In this document: positions 58,229 through 64,000 of the stretch, one piece after another
Numbering within the stretch: the stretch's first letter is position 1
How the letters are laid out: each line of letters starts with the position of its first letter
NCBI GenBank assembly: GCA_026396835.1
Contig: JAPLWA010000004.1
Location: 248,001 to 312,000, forward strand
Length of the DNA stretch: 64,000 nucleotides
DNA from: Candidatus Falkowbacteria bacterium
Lineage (GTDB): Bacteria > Patescibacteriota > Patescibacteriia > Patescibacteriales > Patescibacteriaceae
Direction of reading: 5' to 3'
Position numbers and translations under genes: made by a program
The notes under the pieces: model-generated
What the model saw: the letters and a program-made list of their open reading frames with translations, nothing else
What the model was told of the DNA's origin: nothing
Database searches by the model: none

Positions 58229-58720
58229 TTAGAAGTATATATGGACATATAGGTTGGTTGTTTTGAACTCCTTAAACTCGTGGCCTATACCAATAAGAGT
58301 TTTGCAGCTCAAGTTGTTTGTTACCTTTGTGGTAAATGTTTTTGTTAATCCGATTTCGAGATTAACAATGTTTTTCTTTACATCATCAACCGTACTTGAA
58401 GGATTTTTCGTTGTTGTGAATGTAAAGTATGGACAGAATATAGGGAAAGTGTAGTCGACGTAGACTGACGCTTCGTCGTTACTATTTAAGTAGACTAGCC
58501 AGGATGTCTTATCCAAATCCATTGTCAGAGCAAGCCCTGATTTTTTTGGTGAATAATAGCCACCGACGCCTACCTTTACATCTTTAAAACTGTTTGTTGC
58601 GAACATGCCATATTCCATTTGCTTATCTTTTGCAAGATAGCAAGCACCAGTTATAATATCAAGTGAACCGAATCTTCCGCTCAAGTTTAAACCAGTATGA
58701 GAACCTGGCGTCCTAACCAT
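58229..58720 (-). CDS. C-terminal part of a beta-rich protein, start disrupted
   Basis: The 163-residue frame has alternating hydrophobic residues and ends in a strand with a terminal Phe (TTNLYVHIYF), a beta-barrel-like pattern (for example MEYGMFATNSFKDVKVGVGG). I do not recognise a family. The ATG at 58720 lies inside a tRNA-Glu 5' fragment (58692-58734), so the first dozen residues derive from tRNA sequence and the genuine 5' end is probably missing. A strong terminator shows that it was once a normal gene. It is possibly a remnant left at a recombination junction. Confidence 0.5.
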   Translation of the reverse strand: MVRTPGSHTGLNLSGRFGSLDIITGACYLAKDKQMEYGMFATNSFKDVKVGVGGYYSPKKSGLALTMDLDKTSWLVYLNSNDEASVYVDYTFPIFCPYFTFTTTKNPSSTVDDVKKNIVNLEIGLTKTFTTKVTNNLSCKTLIGIGHEFKEFKTTNLYVHIYF

Positions 58721-58734
58721 TAGACGAAGGGGCC
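58692..58734 (-). pseudogene. 5' half of a tRNA-Glu (CTC) gene
   Basis: On the minus strand the sequence opens GGCCCCTTCGTCTAATGG, then TTAGGACGCCAGG and the anticodon loop TTCTCA. This is the acceptor strand, D arm and anticodon 5' arm of a tRNA-Glu. After the anticodon loop the homology ends: no T arm and no AGGGGCC acceptor partner follow within several hundred bases. Breaks in the anticodon loop are typical of tyrosine-recombinase attachment sites. Confidence 0.7.
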
Positions 58735-58830: not shown

Positions 58831-58898
58831 ACTTCATCACTTTTTAGTCATCATTTAGTCATCCTTTTAAATGGCGATACAGGGAAGAGTGATGAAGT
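58831..58898. repeat. 11-bp perfect inverted repeat in a gene-free stretch
   Basis: The 58735-59155 stretch has no convincing gene. It holds ACTTCATCACT (58831-58841) inverted at 58888-58898, a direct repeat TTTAGTCATC between the arms, a smaller hairpin near 58756-58779, and a run of eight G residues (58915-58922) followed by GGGCCCCC. These could be recombination or replication signals of a mobile element. Confidence 0.5.
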
Positions 58899-59155: not shown

Positions 59156-60331
59156 ATGAAAACAGTAGAAATTTTTGACGAAGATAATTCAATTATTATA
59201 GATGATGATTATAGTACAACGGACTTCACATTCTATCCTGAAGAGAAAAAAATTAAAGTAAGCAGTAGTGTCAAAAATGATTGTTTTTATAATAATGACA
59301 CGATTGAATATAAAATATCCGCAGATCCTATCGAGATATGGATGCGTACGTTAGAAAGTTCACATGAGCCTCCTTTGGAATATTCTATAAAAGATGGTGT
59401 AATTTTAGAATCCGAGATTAAAAAGAAAAACAGTATTTTTCCTGATAGAATTGAAAATCTAAAAAAGGAGGTTGAGTGGAGTAAAGTGCCTTTGTTTGGT
59501 AATTATGAAGTTAATCTTTATATATTGTCCAAACACCCAGAGATTATTTCAAAGGAAGATTACAAGAGATTTCTAAGACAATCAGCAGAAAAAATAAAAA
59601 TTGGTGTTTCAAAAATAGAAGAGGCGGTTAAAACAGATAGTCATGGTTTAGAAATTTATAAAAGTGAATATGGTAAAAACATATGGTATATAAATAGTGA
59701 ATCAGAAAAAAAAGAGATGGATGAATATTATGATCTGCCAGAGAAAAAAAGGAAAGACACCAACTACGCAAAAAAACTTGAATATATAGAAAAATTCAAT
59801 AATTCCTTGTTCGATGAAAAGTCACCTAAGTATGTGGGGATACCAAATTATGAATTTAAAATGAGCGTTGAAATTTTAGAATATATAGAAAAATTATTAG
59901 ACAAAAAAGAAATAGTTGCTAGTGAAGATAGTGATGCAATAAAGAAAAACCCGTGGCGATGGCTTGGCTATACTTGGACCATTATTATTAATTTAATAAC
60001 AATCGGTGTCGTTTTAGCAATTTATGATAAAGTTTACGCGAATTTTGAAATAATTGTAGTGTCAATTCTTATTTTAATTTATTTAAGTTTACAAAGCTTT
60101 TCAATGATTTATGGCCGAACGATTTGGCAGACTGCCTTAGGGCTAGACGTAGAATTTAAACGTATTAGAAAATTATTGAAAAATGAACCAAATAAAGATG
60201 AAAAGGATGAAATGCAAGAAGCTAAAAAGACAGTTAACGAAGCAATGATAAAAATGTATATCAATGCTGCGTTTTTGTTTATTATTTACTTAATTACACT
60301 TCTTCATCTTTTTGGCGCATTACAAAATTAA
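59156..60331 (+). CDS. Hypothetical membrane protein, 391 aa
   Basis: I do not recognise this protein. A large soluble N-terminal part (about 265 residues, beta-rich at the very start, then charged helices) is followed by three C-terminal membrane helices (WTIIINLITIGVVLAIYDKV, IIVVSILILIYLSLQSF, AAFLFIIYLITLLHLFGAL) separated by a charged loop. It is the first gene of the accessory cluster, and the next ATG is 1 base past its stop. The layout, a sensor-like soluble part plus membrane helices, is common in defence modules, but that is only suggestive. Confidence 0.7.
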   Translation: MKTVEIFDEDNSIIIDDDYSTTDFTFYPEEKKIKVSSSVKNDCFYNNDTIEYKISADPIEIWMRTLESSHEPPLEYSIKDGVILESEIKKKNSIFPDRIENLKKEVEWSKVPLFGNYEVNLYILSKHPEIISKEDYKRFLRQSAEKIKIGVSKIEEAVKTDSHGLEIYKSEYGKNIWYINSESEKKEMDEYYDLPEKKRKDTNYAKKLEYIEKFNNSLFDEKSPKYVGIPNYEFKMSVEILEYIEKLLDKKEIVASEDSDAIKKNPWRWLGYTWTIIINLITIGVVLAIYDKVYANFEIIVVSILILIYLSLQSFSMIYGRTIWQTALGLDVEFKRIRKLLKNEPNKDEKDEMQEAKKTVNEAMIKMYINAAFLFIIYLITLLHLFGALQN

Positions 60332-60332
60332 T

Positions 60333-60500
60333 ATGAAAGAAAAATGTGAATATCAGTTCTATACAGTAGAAGAAATAGCAAAGATTTTAAAAGTTAGTAA
60401 GATGACTATTTTTAGGTATATCAAAAGCGGTAAGTTAAAAGCTATTAAGGTTGGTCAATGGAGAATTAAAAAAGAAGATTTTGATAAATTTATTAAGTAA
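60333..60500 (+). CDS. Excisionase/MerR-type helix-turn-helix protein, 55 aa
   Basis: A one-domain DNA-binding protein with the HTH_17 (excisionase-family) pattern: YTVEEIAKILKVSKMTIFRY, then the wing IKSGKLKAIKVGQWRIKKED. I start at the ATG at 60333, 1 base after the preceding stop. Such proteins occur in mobile elements as excisionases or small regulators. The tRNA fragment 1.6 kb upstream fits a mobile-element setting. The target is unknown. Confidence 0.85.
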   Translation: MKEKCEYQFYTVEEIAKILKVSKMTIFRYIKSGKLKAIKVGQWRIKKEDFDKFIK

Positions 60501-60504
60501 TCAT

Positions 60505-61026
60505 ATGACAATAAAAGAGTTAAATAACAAATGGTGGTATAGGCTAGTGAAGGTTTCCTATATCGCTATATTTGTTCTGTTCTCTGTAATTGCAATAACG
60601 TTGTCTATTGAAGAAGTTGGGAACTATCAAGAAGATTACACTGTTAAATGCAATTACGGGAATAAAGGAACATTTTTAGCGGCTAAAGATAAGAATATCT
60701 ATATATCGTCAACGTATGATTACTCTAATAGCTTGACTGATTTACCAGATTATATAAAAACTGACTTACAATCAGCATGCGGAATTTCAAAAAATGAAAT
60801 ATCTGAAATACTTGGTTATACCGACGGATTTATACCTGACGATAGACTAAATTCGTTCGAAGGTAAAAAGTTATTTGAATTAACAAAGACAAAAATAAAC
60901 ATCACTACCCACTTGGACGCAATCCTTCAGGCGCTGTTTTCATTATTTGGTATTTGTGTAGGGTTCGAGGTAATAAGAAGAGTTTTTTATTATGTTGTTA
61001 TCGGAAAAATTAAACCGAAAGAATAG
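60505..61026 (+). CDS. Hypothetical membrane protein, 173 aa
   Basis: A protein with two membrane helices (LVKVSYIAIFVLFSVIAITL near the N-terminus and ILQALFSLFGICVGFEVIRR near the C-terminus) and an outside loop of about 90 residues with two Cys (VKCNYGN, QSACGIS). The start at 60505 follows the HTH gene by 4 bases; an open extension upstream would overlap that gene. No family recognised. Confidence 0.65.
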   Translation: MTIKELNNKWWYRLVKVSYIAIFVLFSVIAITLSIEEVGNYQEDYTVKCNYGNKGTFLAAKDKNIYISSTYDYSNSLTDLPDYIKTDLQSACGISKNEISEILGYTDGFIPDDRLNSFEGKKLFELTKTKINITTHLDAILQALFSLFGICVGFEVIRRVFYYVVIGKIKPKE

Positions 61027-61057
61027 TGAATATTTGATAAATTTATAAACAAATAAT

Positions 61058-61786
61058 ATGAGTAATAAATTAGTTTCATCAATAATAGGGAAAATTAACA
61101 GCATACGTCGAAAAGAATTTGAAAAAAAATTGCCGGAAGGGCAAACTCTTGAATTCGAAAAAGCTAGAATTATTGAAGAATTAAAAAAATATTTATTTTT
61201 TTTAGAAGAGTACATCAAAAATATTCTAAGTAAAAAAGATGAAATTGAAGCAAAAATTAAACAAATAAAAGCTGAAACTAATCAAAGTTTGAATGAGGAA
61301 CAACTCATAAAAGAGTTATGGATTCTGCGGTACACTTGTTTGCACCTATGGTTCTTTGGTATCAAGCCACCAAAAAATCAAAACGATATAGATGAAAATG
61401 TTTCTCTCATTAATCACGCCTTTCAGAGCATAGAAGAAGTGTCTAATTTTTTACCATGGCTTAAAAAAGGATTTACAGAATATACTAGTATTGATGAATT
61501 AAGGTTTTCTGATTTAGAAGAACTTGAATCAAAAATTTCAGAAAAAATTTCAGGAAAGATTCCTTTAATTGCTTTTGAGTGTACGGGGGGTAGGCTCGGT
61601 GGTGAATTGCATGATTTTGTAATCGAGTTATTAATGACAACTATTACACAAGATAAAGGAATCTTTGAAACAGGACATGGTGATATAACAGGAGAAGAGA
61701 CAGAAAACATAAAAAAGGTTATCGGTGATATGAGCACTAATAGAACTAAATTAGCTGAAGATTTTTTTGATGAACTTATTAATTAA
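61058..61786 (+). CDS. Hypothetical protein, 242 aa
   Basis: A soluble, mainly helical protein. The first half looks like a coiled coil (EFEKARIIEELKKYLFFLEE and KDEIEAKIKQIKAETN), and the second half is globular with ECTGGRLGGELHDFVIELLM. I do not recognise it. It lies in the middle of the rightward cluster, 17 bases before the nuclease-like gene. Confidence 0.65.
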   Translation: MSNKLVSSIIGKINSIRRKEFEKKLPEGQTLEFEKARIIEELKKYLFFLEEYIKNILSKKDEIEAKIKQIKAETNQSLNEEQLIKELWILRYTCLHLWFFGIKPPKNQNDIDENVSLINHAFQSIEEVSNFLPWLKKGFTEYTSIDELRFSDLEELESKISEKISGKIPLIAFECTGGRLGGELHDFVIELLMTTITQDKGIFETGHGDITGEETENIKKVIGDMSTNRTKLAEDFFDELIN

Positions 61787-61803
61787 CAGAGAGCTCTACT
61801 AAC

Positions 61804-63036
61804 ATGGACAAAGATATAAAAAAATATTCAACAGAGTTCTCTAAGCTGTTTTTTGGCACAGCTGTTGTTGCTATTATTTTTTTAGCAATTTTCGAAGCTT
61901 CTACGCCAATAATAATTATAGTATTTTTTATAATTGTTATCTCTATCTCATTTTCGACACATAAGACTATAGCCAACGAAGAACGTAAACAACACAATAA
62001 TGAAATAGAAAAATTTCAAGAACAGTTAAAAATCTCAGTAAATAACCTTGAGCAGGCTCGGATAGATGAAAATCTATGGAAGAAAACATTACTAGAAAGA
62101 GCTTCTGGATTTCCAAGTTTAATTAATAGAATTTTAGAATATGAAAAATTAAGAGATGATGGGACCTCTTATTCTCTAAGGGTTAAAAGTCACCCCGCTT
62201 ATAAGGCTTCTGATGTAGTAAAAGAAGAGGCAAAAAGAAGACGAGAGGCAGAGTTTATTAGAAAAAAAACAGAAGCTATTATTGAATACTATGAATATTT
62301 AGCACCGTTTTTATTAGATGTAAAAGAAGATGTTGATATAGACCAGGCTGAAATTTTTGGAGAATATACAGAAGAGGAACAGCAAGATCCAGCGATTAAC
62401 TATCTTACAAAAGAAGAATATAGGAAACTGCCAGCCGTCGAGAGAAATCAATTAGCATTAGATCGATTTTGGAAGCGCCCCAATAAGTCTAAATGGCTTA
62501 TTGGTAAATTATATGAAAGGTATGTTGGATATTTGTATGAAAAAGATGGTTACAATGTTGAGTACCATGGGATACAATATAAACTAGAAGATCTAGGAAT
62601 AGATTTAATTTGTAAGAAAAATAATGAAATAGTATTAATACAATGTAAAAATTGGGCGAGTTTTAGAACTATTTATGAGAAACATATCTTTCAGTTTTTC
62701 GGAACATTTTTTCAGTATAGAGATTCTAATCCTGGGAAAAAAATAAGAGCAGTTTTCTGCACAACTACAAAGCTATCTGAATTAGCCACAAAATTCGCAA
62801 ATGCCTTGGGTATTGAATTGAAAGAAAATTTTAAATTTGATCAGTCTTACCCATGTATTAAATGTAACATAAATAATTCTACTAATGAAAAGATTTACCA
62901 CCTACCATTTGATCAGCAATATGATAAAACTAAAATTCTTGGTAAAAATGAAATTTATTGCAGGACAACAAAGGAAGCTGAGGTCGCCGGATTTAGAAGG
63001 GCTTTCCGTTGGCATGGAAGCAAGAGTGATGGCTAG
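61804..63036 (+). CDS. Membrane-anchored restriction endonuclease-like (Mrr/PD-(D/E)xK) protein
   Basis: A 410-residue protein. Two N-terminal membrane helices (about 14-34 and 37-56) are followed by a coiled coil, a linker, and a restriction-endonuclease-like domain: GKLYERYVGYLYEKDGYNVE, then LGIDLICKKNNEIVLIQCKNW with the D...QxK catalytic pattern. The C-terminal end (EKIYHLPFDQQYDKTKI, then EAEVAGFRRAFRW) resembles the Ada-type metal-binding tail but without its usual Cys. Similar proteins often appear in defence islands. Activity on DNA is likely but unproven. Confidence 0.85.
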   Translation: MDKDIKKYSTEFSKLFFGTAVVAIIFLAIFEASTPIIIIVFFIIVISISFSTHKTIANEERKQHNNEIEKFQEQLKISVNNLEQARIDENLWKKTLLERASGFPSLINRILEYEKLRDDGTSYSLRVKSHPAYKASDVVKEEAKRRREAEFIRKKTEAIIEYYEYLAPFLLDVKEDVDIDQAEIFGEYTEEEQQDPAINYLTKEEYRKLPAVERNQLALDRFWKRPNKSKWLIGKLYERYVGYLYEKDGYNVEYHGIQYKLEDLGIDLICKKNNEIVLIQCKNWASFRTIYEKHIFQFFGTFFQYRDSNPGKKIRAVFCTTTKLSELATKFANALGIELKENFKFDQSYPCIKCNINNSTNEKIYHLPFDQQYDKTKILGKNEIYCRTTKEAEVAGFRRAFRWHGSKSDG

Positions 63037-63128
63037 CAATATGGAATTTTTGAATGATCTAGAGATAATTAAAACAATATAATAAGATTGCTTTTTAATG
63101 CTACTTAAATAAATAATTATATTTTAGT

Positions 63129-64000
63129 ATGGCATCTTTATTTAGAGAAGATTTACCCGTATGTACTCCTAAAAACCTCAGACAAGTTGCCGAAAAACTT
63201 GAATTAGATTCTGGCTATCTAGCTTTGGCATCATATCCAGAGCTTGTTGAAGTAAGAAATATTTTTAATCGTTGGTACTTGGAAATAAAAGATTTTTTAG
63301 ATAAGCAATATATTAAATTTATACAAAAAGATTTTCACAGTAGATCATGGGAACTTTTTTGTGGGAAATTATTAAATACTAACTTTGGCTTAAAAACAAA
63401 AAAATCACAAATCGGGACGCCAGATTTCCTCATAGGTATTAATAGTACACCGGCCTGGATTGAATCAATGGCCCCAGAAAATGCAACCAATGCAAATAAA
63501 ATTCTACTTTTGCGTGATCAATTTAATACTGCTAATTCAGGAACAATGATATCAGGTGGCGGTCCTATAAATGAACTTGCTGATCCGGTTGTCTTTAGAA
63601 TCAAAAGTAAGATTCTTGATAAATATAAGTCATTCTTCACAACCTATTTAAATTTTGGAGTTAAAAAGAGTGATTTTTATATAATAGCTTTAAACATTCA
63701 TTCTTTTGATGACGGATTTTTAGATGAAAGGATATTCAGACAAATATTTTTTGGGCAAGGTAATAACATTGTTTTCCCCGGAGATAAAAAGAATATTACT
63801 AATAATACTAAATATGTTGAAAATAGGGCAACCGCAACTAATTTAGAGGGTAAAAATATTTCGGTAGGTATCTTCTTAGATGATAGATTTAAGTACTTAA
63901 GCGGTGTTTTAATCACTTCTAATGATGTGTTTAACCTTGCGATTAAAAAAGATATTGGCTCTAGCTTATTTTTTATTCATAACTGCAATGCCCAAAATAA
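63129..64000 (+). CDS. Nuclease-like protein (PD-(D/E)xK type?), 3' end outside window
   Basis: An open frame from the ATG at 63129 to the window end, 290 codons without a stop, so the gene is truncated by the window only. The segment SWELFCGKLLNTNFGLKT, then IGTPDFLIGINSTPAWIESM has the shape of a PD-(D/E)xK-type core (an early Glu, PD on a strand, then a charged residue on the next strand), although the last residue pattern is IES rather than ExK. I cannot name a family. It follows the membrane nuclease by about 90 bases on the same strand. Confidence 0.65.
   Translation, partial: MASLFREDLPVCTPKNLRQVAEKLELDSGYLALASYPELVEVRNIFNRWYLEIKDFLDKQYIKFIQKDFHSRSWELFCGKLLNTNFGLKTKKSQIGTPDFLIGINSTPAWIESMAPENATNANKILLLRDQFNTANSGTMISGGGPINELADPVVFRIKSKILDKYKSFFTTYLNFGVKKSDFYIIALNIHSFDDGFLDERIFRQIFFGQGNNIVFPGDKKNITNNTKYVENRATATNLEGKNISVGIFLDDRFKYLSGVLITSNDVFNLAIKKDIGSSLFFIHNCNAQN

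What the first reader, a model, noticed from the sequence alone, without database searches (positions are those of the whole stretch)
59156..64000. Rightward cluster of unrecognised membrane proteins, HTH and two nuclease-like proteins
Six consecutive genes on one strand with short gaps: large membrane protein, excisionase-like HTH, two-helix membrane protein, coiled-coil protein, membrane-anchored Mrr-like nuclease and a second PD-(D/E)xK-like protein. The combination of a sensor-like membrane protein, unknown helical proteins and nucleases is typical of defence islands, and the cluster starts close to a broken tRNA. No known system type (R-M, CBASS, Gabija, Zorya, and so on) fits what I can read, so it could be an undescribed one.
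Basis: inference. Interest (0 to 1): 0.7.

Follow-up and report, generated by a model that had tools for sequence, protein, structure and literature searches.

The report
Mobile element carrying candidate defence nucleases
The gene cluster is the cargo of a small mobile DNA element in the genome of a tiny bacterium; it carries a membrane-anchored DNA-cutting protein of a widespread, apparently undescribed family and a distant relative of a known phage-defence protein, so it probably protects its host against foreign DNA, though it is not one conserved six-gene system.

Summary
The six genes are real, but they are cargo of an integrative element of about 11.2 kb that runs past the window: tyrosine integrase, excisionase and an AAA replication-type ATPase lie beyond 64000. 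The 'broken tRNA' is the 5' half of a tRNA-Glu(CTC) that the element itself carries at its attachment site; the other half is at the far end, and the element interrupts a secreted-protein gene.

The six genes are not one conserved system. Of 239 genomes of the phylum, g5 is in 6 others, g1 in 3, g6 weakly in 2, g4 in none, and no other genome has two. One sub-unit is supported: in G456, of 192 relatives, g4 and g5 again lie side by side.

g5 is an intact-looking Mrr-type nuclease with an N-terminal membrane anchor and a near-invariant C-terminal 'sunset' domain. Its family spans bacteria, archaea and provirus contigs, where it sits beside the lysogeny repressor. g6 belongs near the PD-T7-5 defence family. 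Best reading: element-borne defence cargo led by a membrane-tethered Mrr-like nuclease. Function is inferred, not shown.

The parts
58229..58720 (-). C-terminal half of a secreted, beta-barrel-like protein gene interrupted by the element; the N-terminal half is at L003:13794-14276 (beyond the window)
   Evidence: Rejoined flanks give one open frame across the 12-bp core; a 270-aa homologue in G193 is colinear with both halves, N half E 1.8e-10, C half E 0.003 with composition correction off
58691..58734 (-). 5' part of the element's tRNA-Glu(CTC); left end of the element, with the 12-bp core CCAGGTTCTCAT at 58697-58708
   Evidence: Short joined ends give a 73-base tRNA-Glu(CTC) in ARAGORN; the other part is C4:317848-317894
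58843..58864 (+). 22-bp repeat (two TTTAGTCATC units), repeated exactly near the right end at L003:13723-13744; possible integrase arm sites
   Evidence: Longest exact repeat shared by the two ends; role inferred
59156..60331 (+). g1, 391 aa, three hydrophobic C-terminal segments; mobile cargo of unknown role
   Evidence: No family above cut-off; sub-threshold 8xMP match E 0.11 over 12-133 of 136; 52-53% identical homologues in G064 and G226, C-terminal match in G056
60333..60500 (+). g2, 55 aa excisionase-type helix-turn-helix
   Evidence: TIGR01764, HTH_17; 94% DNA-identical copy in another element at C6:77263-77448
60505..61026 (+). g3, 173 aa, two hydrophobic segments around an extracytoplasmic-looking middle
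   Evidence: No family; one full-length relative, 33%, in G385, others short
61058..61786 (+). g4, 242 aa, mostly helical by its sequence; partner of g5
   Evidence: 50% identical homologue in G456 directly upstream of a g5 homologue, 17-bp gap in both
61804..63036 (+). g5, 410 aa: N-terminal membrane anchor, long helix, Mrr-type PD-(D/E)xK nuclease domain (about 229-349), sunset domain (352-400)
   Evidence: Mrr_cat and NF051437 above cut-offs; E238, D267, Q280, K282 invariant in 30 sequences; AlphaFold2 model pLDDT 84.5; VIA Z 13.7 to AF1548
63129..64000 (+). g6, PD-T7-5-like PD-(D/E)xK protein, 326 aa, runs 109 bases past the window
   Evidence: PADLOC PD-T7-5 E 8.4e-15, positions 9-233 of 346; phrog_8571 E 1.2e-19

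Best explanation
The cluster is the cargo end of an integrative element of about 11.2 kb, and the cargo most likely defends the host, and so the resident element, against incoming DNA. The active core would be the g4-g5 pair. g5 is held at the inner face of the cell membrane by its N-terminal helix; its Mrr-type domain cuts DNA; its sunset domain, which resembles the N-terminal DNA-binding domain of Ada only weakly, would hold or recognise the DNA; g4 would regulate or help it. g6, a distant PD-T7-5 relative, would be a second, independent defence gene. SHOWN: the element, its ends and its integrase; g5's domains and conserved catalytic residues; the wide spread of the g5 family and its place beside repressors in provirus contigs; g4-g5 recurrence in one other genome. 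INFERRED: membrane side, nuclease activity, DNA recognition, g4's role, and the defence function itself.
For: Integrase, excisionase and matching ends. g5: Mrr_cat and sunset above cut-offs; invariant E, D, QxK; fold match to Mrr-like and modification-dependent nucleases: AF1548 Z 13.7 over 135 residues, MspJI Foldseek E 1.2e-5. Anchor kept though built differently: of 48 loci 37 were usable; 17 have the anchor fused, 13 have a short membrane gene directly upstream, 7 neither; all 18 provirus copies have a hydrophobic segment in their first 130 residues. Ten of 150 neighbours of g5 are Zn_ribbon_Top1 proteins. Provirus position: 18 of 65 flanking genes match HTH_3, 5 Phage_integrase, 1 Resolvase; by my reading, 16 of 18 loci have a repressor-like gene within two genes upstream. 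Transfer: window g5 lies in a 100/99-supported group of 17 rows that mixes Patescibacteria with an archaeon, Planctomycetota, Nitrospinota and Thermodesulfobacteriota. g6: PD-T7-5; PD-T7-5 is listed as a PD(D/E)XK nuclease from Vassallo 2022 in PMC10952713 (table passage).
Against: No experiment. PADLOC does not know g5: of 30 members 2 match Type IV models weakly, best E 1.5e-4. Defence models near g5 are only weakly enriched: 251 PADLOC families matched in 150 near neighbours against 111 in 150 of 238 farther genes of the same loci, with similar top counts. No match in 50,697 phage records. The Ada resemblance is weak: Foldseek E 5.6, VIA Z 4.8, and 1 of 29 Pfam at E 0.069. g6's third motif reads WIESM, without the lysine. 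g4-g5 rests on two cases.
Confidence: 0.52

Rival explanations
1. The six genes form one undescribed defence system with g1 as membrane sensor and g5/g6 as effectors.
For: Same strand, short gaps; two nuclease-like proteins.
Against: No other genome of 239 holds two of g1, g4, g5, g6; g1 rides another element without g5/g6; a g6 homologue lies alone among transfer genes of an Erwinia plasmid.
Confidence: 0.06
2. g4-g5 is a toxin-antitoxin or abortive-infection pair: g5 cuts the host's own DNA when released by g4 on infection.
For: Two adjacent genes kept together with nucleases from two distant branches of the g5 family; in G456 the next gene has a sub-threshold Abi_alpha match, E 0.077.
Against: Most g5 homologues have no g4-like neighbour: a g4 profile finds no further strong hit in the loci held, so g5 is not generally toxic without g4.
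Confidence: 0.17
3. g5 is an exclusion or uptake-control nuclease of mobile elements: it cuts plasmid, conjugative or taken-up DNA at the membrane rather than phage DNA.
For: Membrane anchor retained by fusion or separate gene; serine-recombinase genes near several Patescibacteria copies; carried by plasmids of Hymenobacter.
Against: Provirus placement fits phage exclusion equally; no target was tested.
Confidence: 0.22
4. g5 is a maintenance nuclease of the element, for example in replication or junction resolution, not defence.
For: Fold rows include Holliday-junction resolvases and EndoMS.
Against: g5 occurs in unrelated elements, proviruses and plasmids with different neighbours; the membrane anchor and the place between repressor and integrase are odd for that role.
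Confidence: 0.1

Closest known systems
Mrr-type (Type IV) restriction endonucleases
   Same: Mrr_cat domain with the conserved E, D and QxK residues; fold matches to AF1548, MspJI and AspBHI
   Different: Membrane anchor and long helix in place of a winged-helix reader; C-terminal sunset domain; no Mrr_N hit; specificity unknown
PD-T7-5 (Vassallo et al. 2022)
   Same: g6 matches the PADLOC model over 22-263, E 8.4e-15; a homologue appears as a lone cargo gene
   Different: Match covers 9-233 of 346 positions; lysine of the third motif not seen
Sunset-domain proteins (NCBIfam NF051437)
   Same: g5 352-400, 30.0 bits against a cut-off of 27
   Different: Here fused to a membrane-anchored Mrr nuclease; no function is in print that I could find
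Phages with tRNA-dependent lysogeny (Guerrero-Bustamante and Hatfull 2024, PMC10865867; abstract and passages read)
   Same: Tyrosine integrase, short core, element-borne tRNA, secondary sites in protein genes
   Different: Here the core lies inside the element's own tRNA gene, so integration splits that tRNA

Membership tests
Mrr-type nuclease (Mrr_cat) | Mrr_cat domain above the curated cut-off | tested here: met
   39.2 bits, cut-off 21
Mrr-type nuclease (Mrr_cat) | Catalytic E, D and QxK residues | tested here: met
   E238, D267, Q280, K282 invariant in 30 of 30 aligned sequences
Mrr restriction enzyme proper (Type IV) | N-terminal winged-helix Mrr_N domain (recalled as typical) | tested here: not met
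   No Mrr_N match for g5 at E up to 1; residues 2-100 are one helix in the model
Mrr restriction enzyme proper (Type IV) | Cleaves modified DNA | not testable with these tools
   Needs biochemistry
Sunset domain NF051437 | Score above the curated cut-off | tested here: met
   30 bits, cut-off 27
N-Ada fold (for the sunset domain) | Significant structural or sequence match | tested here: inconclusive
   1u8b Z 4.8 (rmsd 6.7, 59 aligned) and 1adn Z 3.6 (rmsd 3.4, 62 aligned), Foldseek E 5.6, Pfam Ada 1 of 29 at E 0.069
PD-T7-5 | Match to the family model | tested here: met
   E 8.4e-15, 52.7 bits; the output gives no curated cut-off; found again at genome level, E 2.4e-14
PD-T7-5 | Complete PD-(D/E)xK motif | tested here: inconclusive
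   WELF, TPDFLIG and WIESM present, lysine absent
PD-T7-5 | Protects against phage T7 | not testable with these tools
   Needs a plating test
MADS (mad1) | HTH protein MAD1 above cut-off | tested here: not met
   g2 37 bits, cut-off 80; the excisionase model scores above its cut-off instead
Other known systems (R-M, CBASS, Gabija, Zorya) | PADLOC component matches among the element's proteins | tested here: not met
   Ten proteins scanned; apart from PD-T7-5, only HTH, ATPase and chance-level rows

The most novel reading that the evidence does not exclude
The g5 family is an undescribed immune nuclease: an Mrr-type cutter tethered to the membrane, either by its own anchor or by a partner gene with a zinc ribbon, that destroys DNA as it enters the cell, reads it through a near-invariant Ada-like sunset domain, and is passed between proviruses, plasmids and integrative elements of bacteria and archaea; g4 is one of its alternative partners.
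Probability: 0.28. Interest if true: 0.72.

Novelty: new variant of a known kind. Interest (0 to 1): 0.5.

Why it matters
Patescibacteria mostly lack CRISPR-Cas; PMC12455944 (passages read) says so and reports that their transferred genes are rich in defence functions. A membrane-tethered Mrr nuclease that turns up in 48 genome loci across many phyla, in archaea and in proviruses, but is nearly unknown to PADLOC, would be a common immune gene missed by present catalogues, and its almost unchanging sunset domain gives a concrete handle on what it recognises. If it is not defence, the strict conservation of that domain still needs explaining.

Tried and rejected
A single conserved six-gene system: rejected on distribution. 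A host tRNA broken by the insertion: rejected, because the halves are permuted and intact tRNA-Glu CTC and TTC genes exist elsewhere. g2 as MADS component: below cut-off. Relatives of g6, g1 and g4 in viral contigs: none. g5 in phage records: none. Empty site in close kin: the interrupted gene was found in 1 other of 144 class genomes and in 0 others of 61 relatives, so no empty site in the genus could be shown. PADLOC enrichment near g5: weak and confounded, since control genes come from the same loci. Sequence search of solved structures: none for g5 at E 0.01, chance rows for g6, g4 and the sunset domain. g1 as 8xMP: sub-threshold on g1 and one of its homologues, left open. Sunset domain alone folded only to pLDDT 72. 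g1, g4 and g6 were not folded: both fold jobs went to g5 and its sunset domain.
Full report
WHAT IS THERE. The window is G000:C4:248001-312000 of a 1.05-Mb draft genome. Six same-strand ORFs start at 59156; random DNA of the same dinucleotide make-up gave no ORF above 137 aa in 200 shuffles. Reading past the window (L003 = C4:304000-322000; window position = L003 position + 55999) shows g6 ending at L003:8110, then a 161-aa ORF on the other strand, a 234-aa ORF, an AAA_25 ATPase like those of helicase-primases (L003:10397-11593), a 125-aa protein with only chance-level zinc-finger matches, an excisionase-type HTH (L003:12484-12681) and a tyrosine integrase (L003:12691-13797; phrog_1 E 4.3e-69; Phage_integrase E 1.4e-30).

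THE ENDS. The two ends share the 12-bp core CCAGGTTCTCAT (58697-58708, and L003:13884-13895; 11,186 bases apart; positions worked out). Joining the short ends gives a complete 73-base tRNA-Glu(CTC) by ARAGORN; joining the short flanks gives one open frame ...KSIIPGSHTGLNLSG... of a secreted-looking protein. A homologue in G193, 270 aa, is colinear with both halves. Both ends also hold an exact 22-bp repeat made of two TTTAGTCATC units, possibly integrase arm sites (inference). The element's GC is 31.1%, against 35.9% for window 1-58700. The 3' part of the element's tRNA equals the host's intact tRNA-Glu(CTC), while the 5' part differs at three bases. Of three integrase relatives found in 229 genomes at E 1e-40, two lie next to intact tRNA genes, tRNA-Tyr/Thr and tRNA-Val; the third is on a short contig without one. 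So this integrase type probably uses tRNA genes as a rule, and here it probably used a secondary site in a protein gene. Secondary sites in protein genes are reported for phages with tRNA-dependent lysogeny (PMC10865867, abstract and passages).

IS IT ONE SYSTEM? In 239 genomes drawn from the phylum, own genome included, g5 has matches in 6 others (45-62% identity), g1 in 3 others, g6 in 2 others (29% and 22%), g4 in none; no other genome appears in two lists. g1 in G064 lies in a different element, with a serine recombinase and a 48% homologue of the 125-aa backbone protein but no g5 or g6. g2 has a 94% DNA-identical copy in another element of the same genome. In 192 closer relatives, 10 have a g4 match at E up to 0.1: own, G456 (50%, E 9e-67) and eight between 0.003 and 0.08 that I take as chance. 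In G456 a 44% g5 homologue follows g4 directly, with the same 17-bp gap. The G456 nuclease lies outside the well-supported 17-row group that holds the window's g5, so the pairing spans distant branches. Two cases are few, but this is the one sub-unit with support.

g5. Residues 2-100 form one long helix with a hydrophobic start, about 229-349 the nuclease, 352-400 the sunset domain. In 30 aligned sequences E238, D267, Q280 and K282 never change, nor do most of IYHLPFDQxYD in the sunset domain. Best solved-structure matches are AF1548 (Z 13.7, 135 aligned, rmsd 3.4), EndoMS (Z 12.4, 106 aligned, rmsd 2.7), the cyclic-oligonucleotide-bound nucleases Can2 and Cdn1, MspJI and AspBHI. Forty-eight genome loci encode relatives, in Patescibacteria, Bacteroidota, Bacillota, Planctomycetota, Cyanobacteriota, archaea and others. 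Eleven were set aside as partial or broken; of the 37 left, 17 carry the anchor fused, 13 have a short membrane gene directly upstream (8 of these with a zinc-ribbon-like cysteine pattern) and 7 neither. Pfam names that partner Zn_ribbon_Top1 in 10 of 150 neighbours. Eighteen IMG/VR contigs carry g5; two of them look like near copies (L106, L107). Around these, 18 of 65 flanking genes match HTH_3, 5 Phage_integrase, 4 Peptidase_S24; around genome loci HTH_3 was 4 of 150. By eye, 16 of 18 have a repressor-like gene within two genes upstream. Genes in that place are commonly expressed in lysogens and often exclude other phages (general knowledge; inference here). No INPHARED phage record matched; four Hymenobacter plasmids did.

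SUNSET DOMAIN. It scores above its NCBIfam cut-off. Folded alone it is only fair (pLDDT 72); its best structural rows are two structures of the N-terminal DNA-binding domain of Ada, at weak scores, and one of 29 members touches Pfam's Ada model at E 0.069. I take DNA binding as a lead, not a result.

g6. PADLOC's PD-T7-5 and phrog_8571 match. PMC10952713 lists PD-T7-5 among PD(D/E)XK nucleases from Vassallo et al. 2022 (table passage); PMC10270631 notes a low-probability RmuC-like prediction for it (passage); a word search of the main text of the Vassallo paper (PMC9519451) does not find 'PD-T7-5' (passages on related systems). A 21% homologue lies alone among transfer genes of the conjugative plasmid pEB102. 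The third catalytic motif lacks its lysine, so activity is uncertain.

CONTROLS AND LIMITS. PADLOC models matched 251 families in 150 near neighbours of g5 and 111 in 150 of 238 farther genes, but the most frequent families were alike: weak support. g5 itself is nearly unknown to PADLOC (2 of 30, best E 1.5e-4). Literature searches that turned up no description of this architecture (search listings only); the library holds open-licence papers only.

VERDICT. An integrative element with a tyrosine integrase carries mixed cargo whose best-supported role is defence or exclusion. The new part is the widespread membrane-anchored Mrr-sunset nuclease and its alternative partners; the six-gene 'system' is not supported.

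Noticed in passing
58691-58734 and L003:13849-13895: The element carries a whole tRNA-Glu(CTC) at its attachment site that integration cuts in two; the 3' part equals the host's tRNA, the 5' part does not.
   Followed up: partly
L004:4257-7442 (G000:C6): A second element with a serine recombinase appears to interrupt a ComM-like gene (name recalled) and carries a near copy of g2 among small lipoprotein-like genes.
   Followed up: partly
L129:6655-7845 (G456:C75): The gene after the G456 g4-g5 pair has a C-terminal Polyketide_cyc2 domain (E 6.4e-7) and a sub-threshold Abi_alpha match (E 0.077): a possible third component.
   Followed up: partly
L030:9196-10161 and L113:7141-8010: DUF4238 genes lie next to g5 homologues in a WWE3 genome and in a Hymenobacter plasmid; DUF4238 is 2 of 150 neighbours.
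   Followed up: no
L032:7486-7926, L035:711-1163, L042:2192-2677 and others: A family of short membrane proteins, most with a topoisomerase-type zinc ribbon, overlaps or abuts the start of anchorless g5 homologues.
   Followed up: yes
L003:2700-14000: Promoter-like sites in the element are no more frequent than in shuffles (45 against 53.7 expected), so transcription units could not be called from sequence.
   Followed up: no
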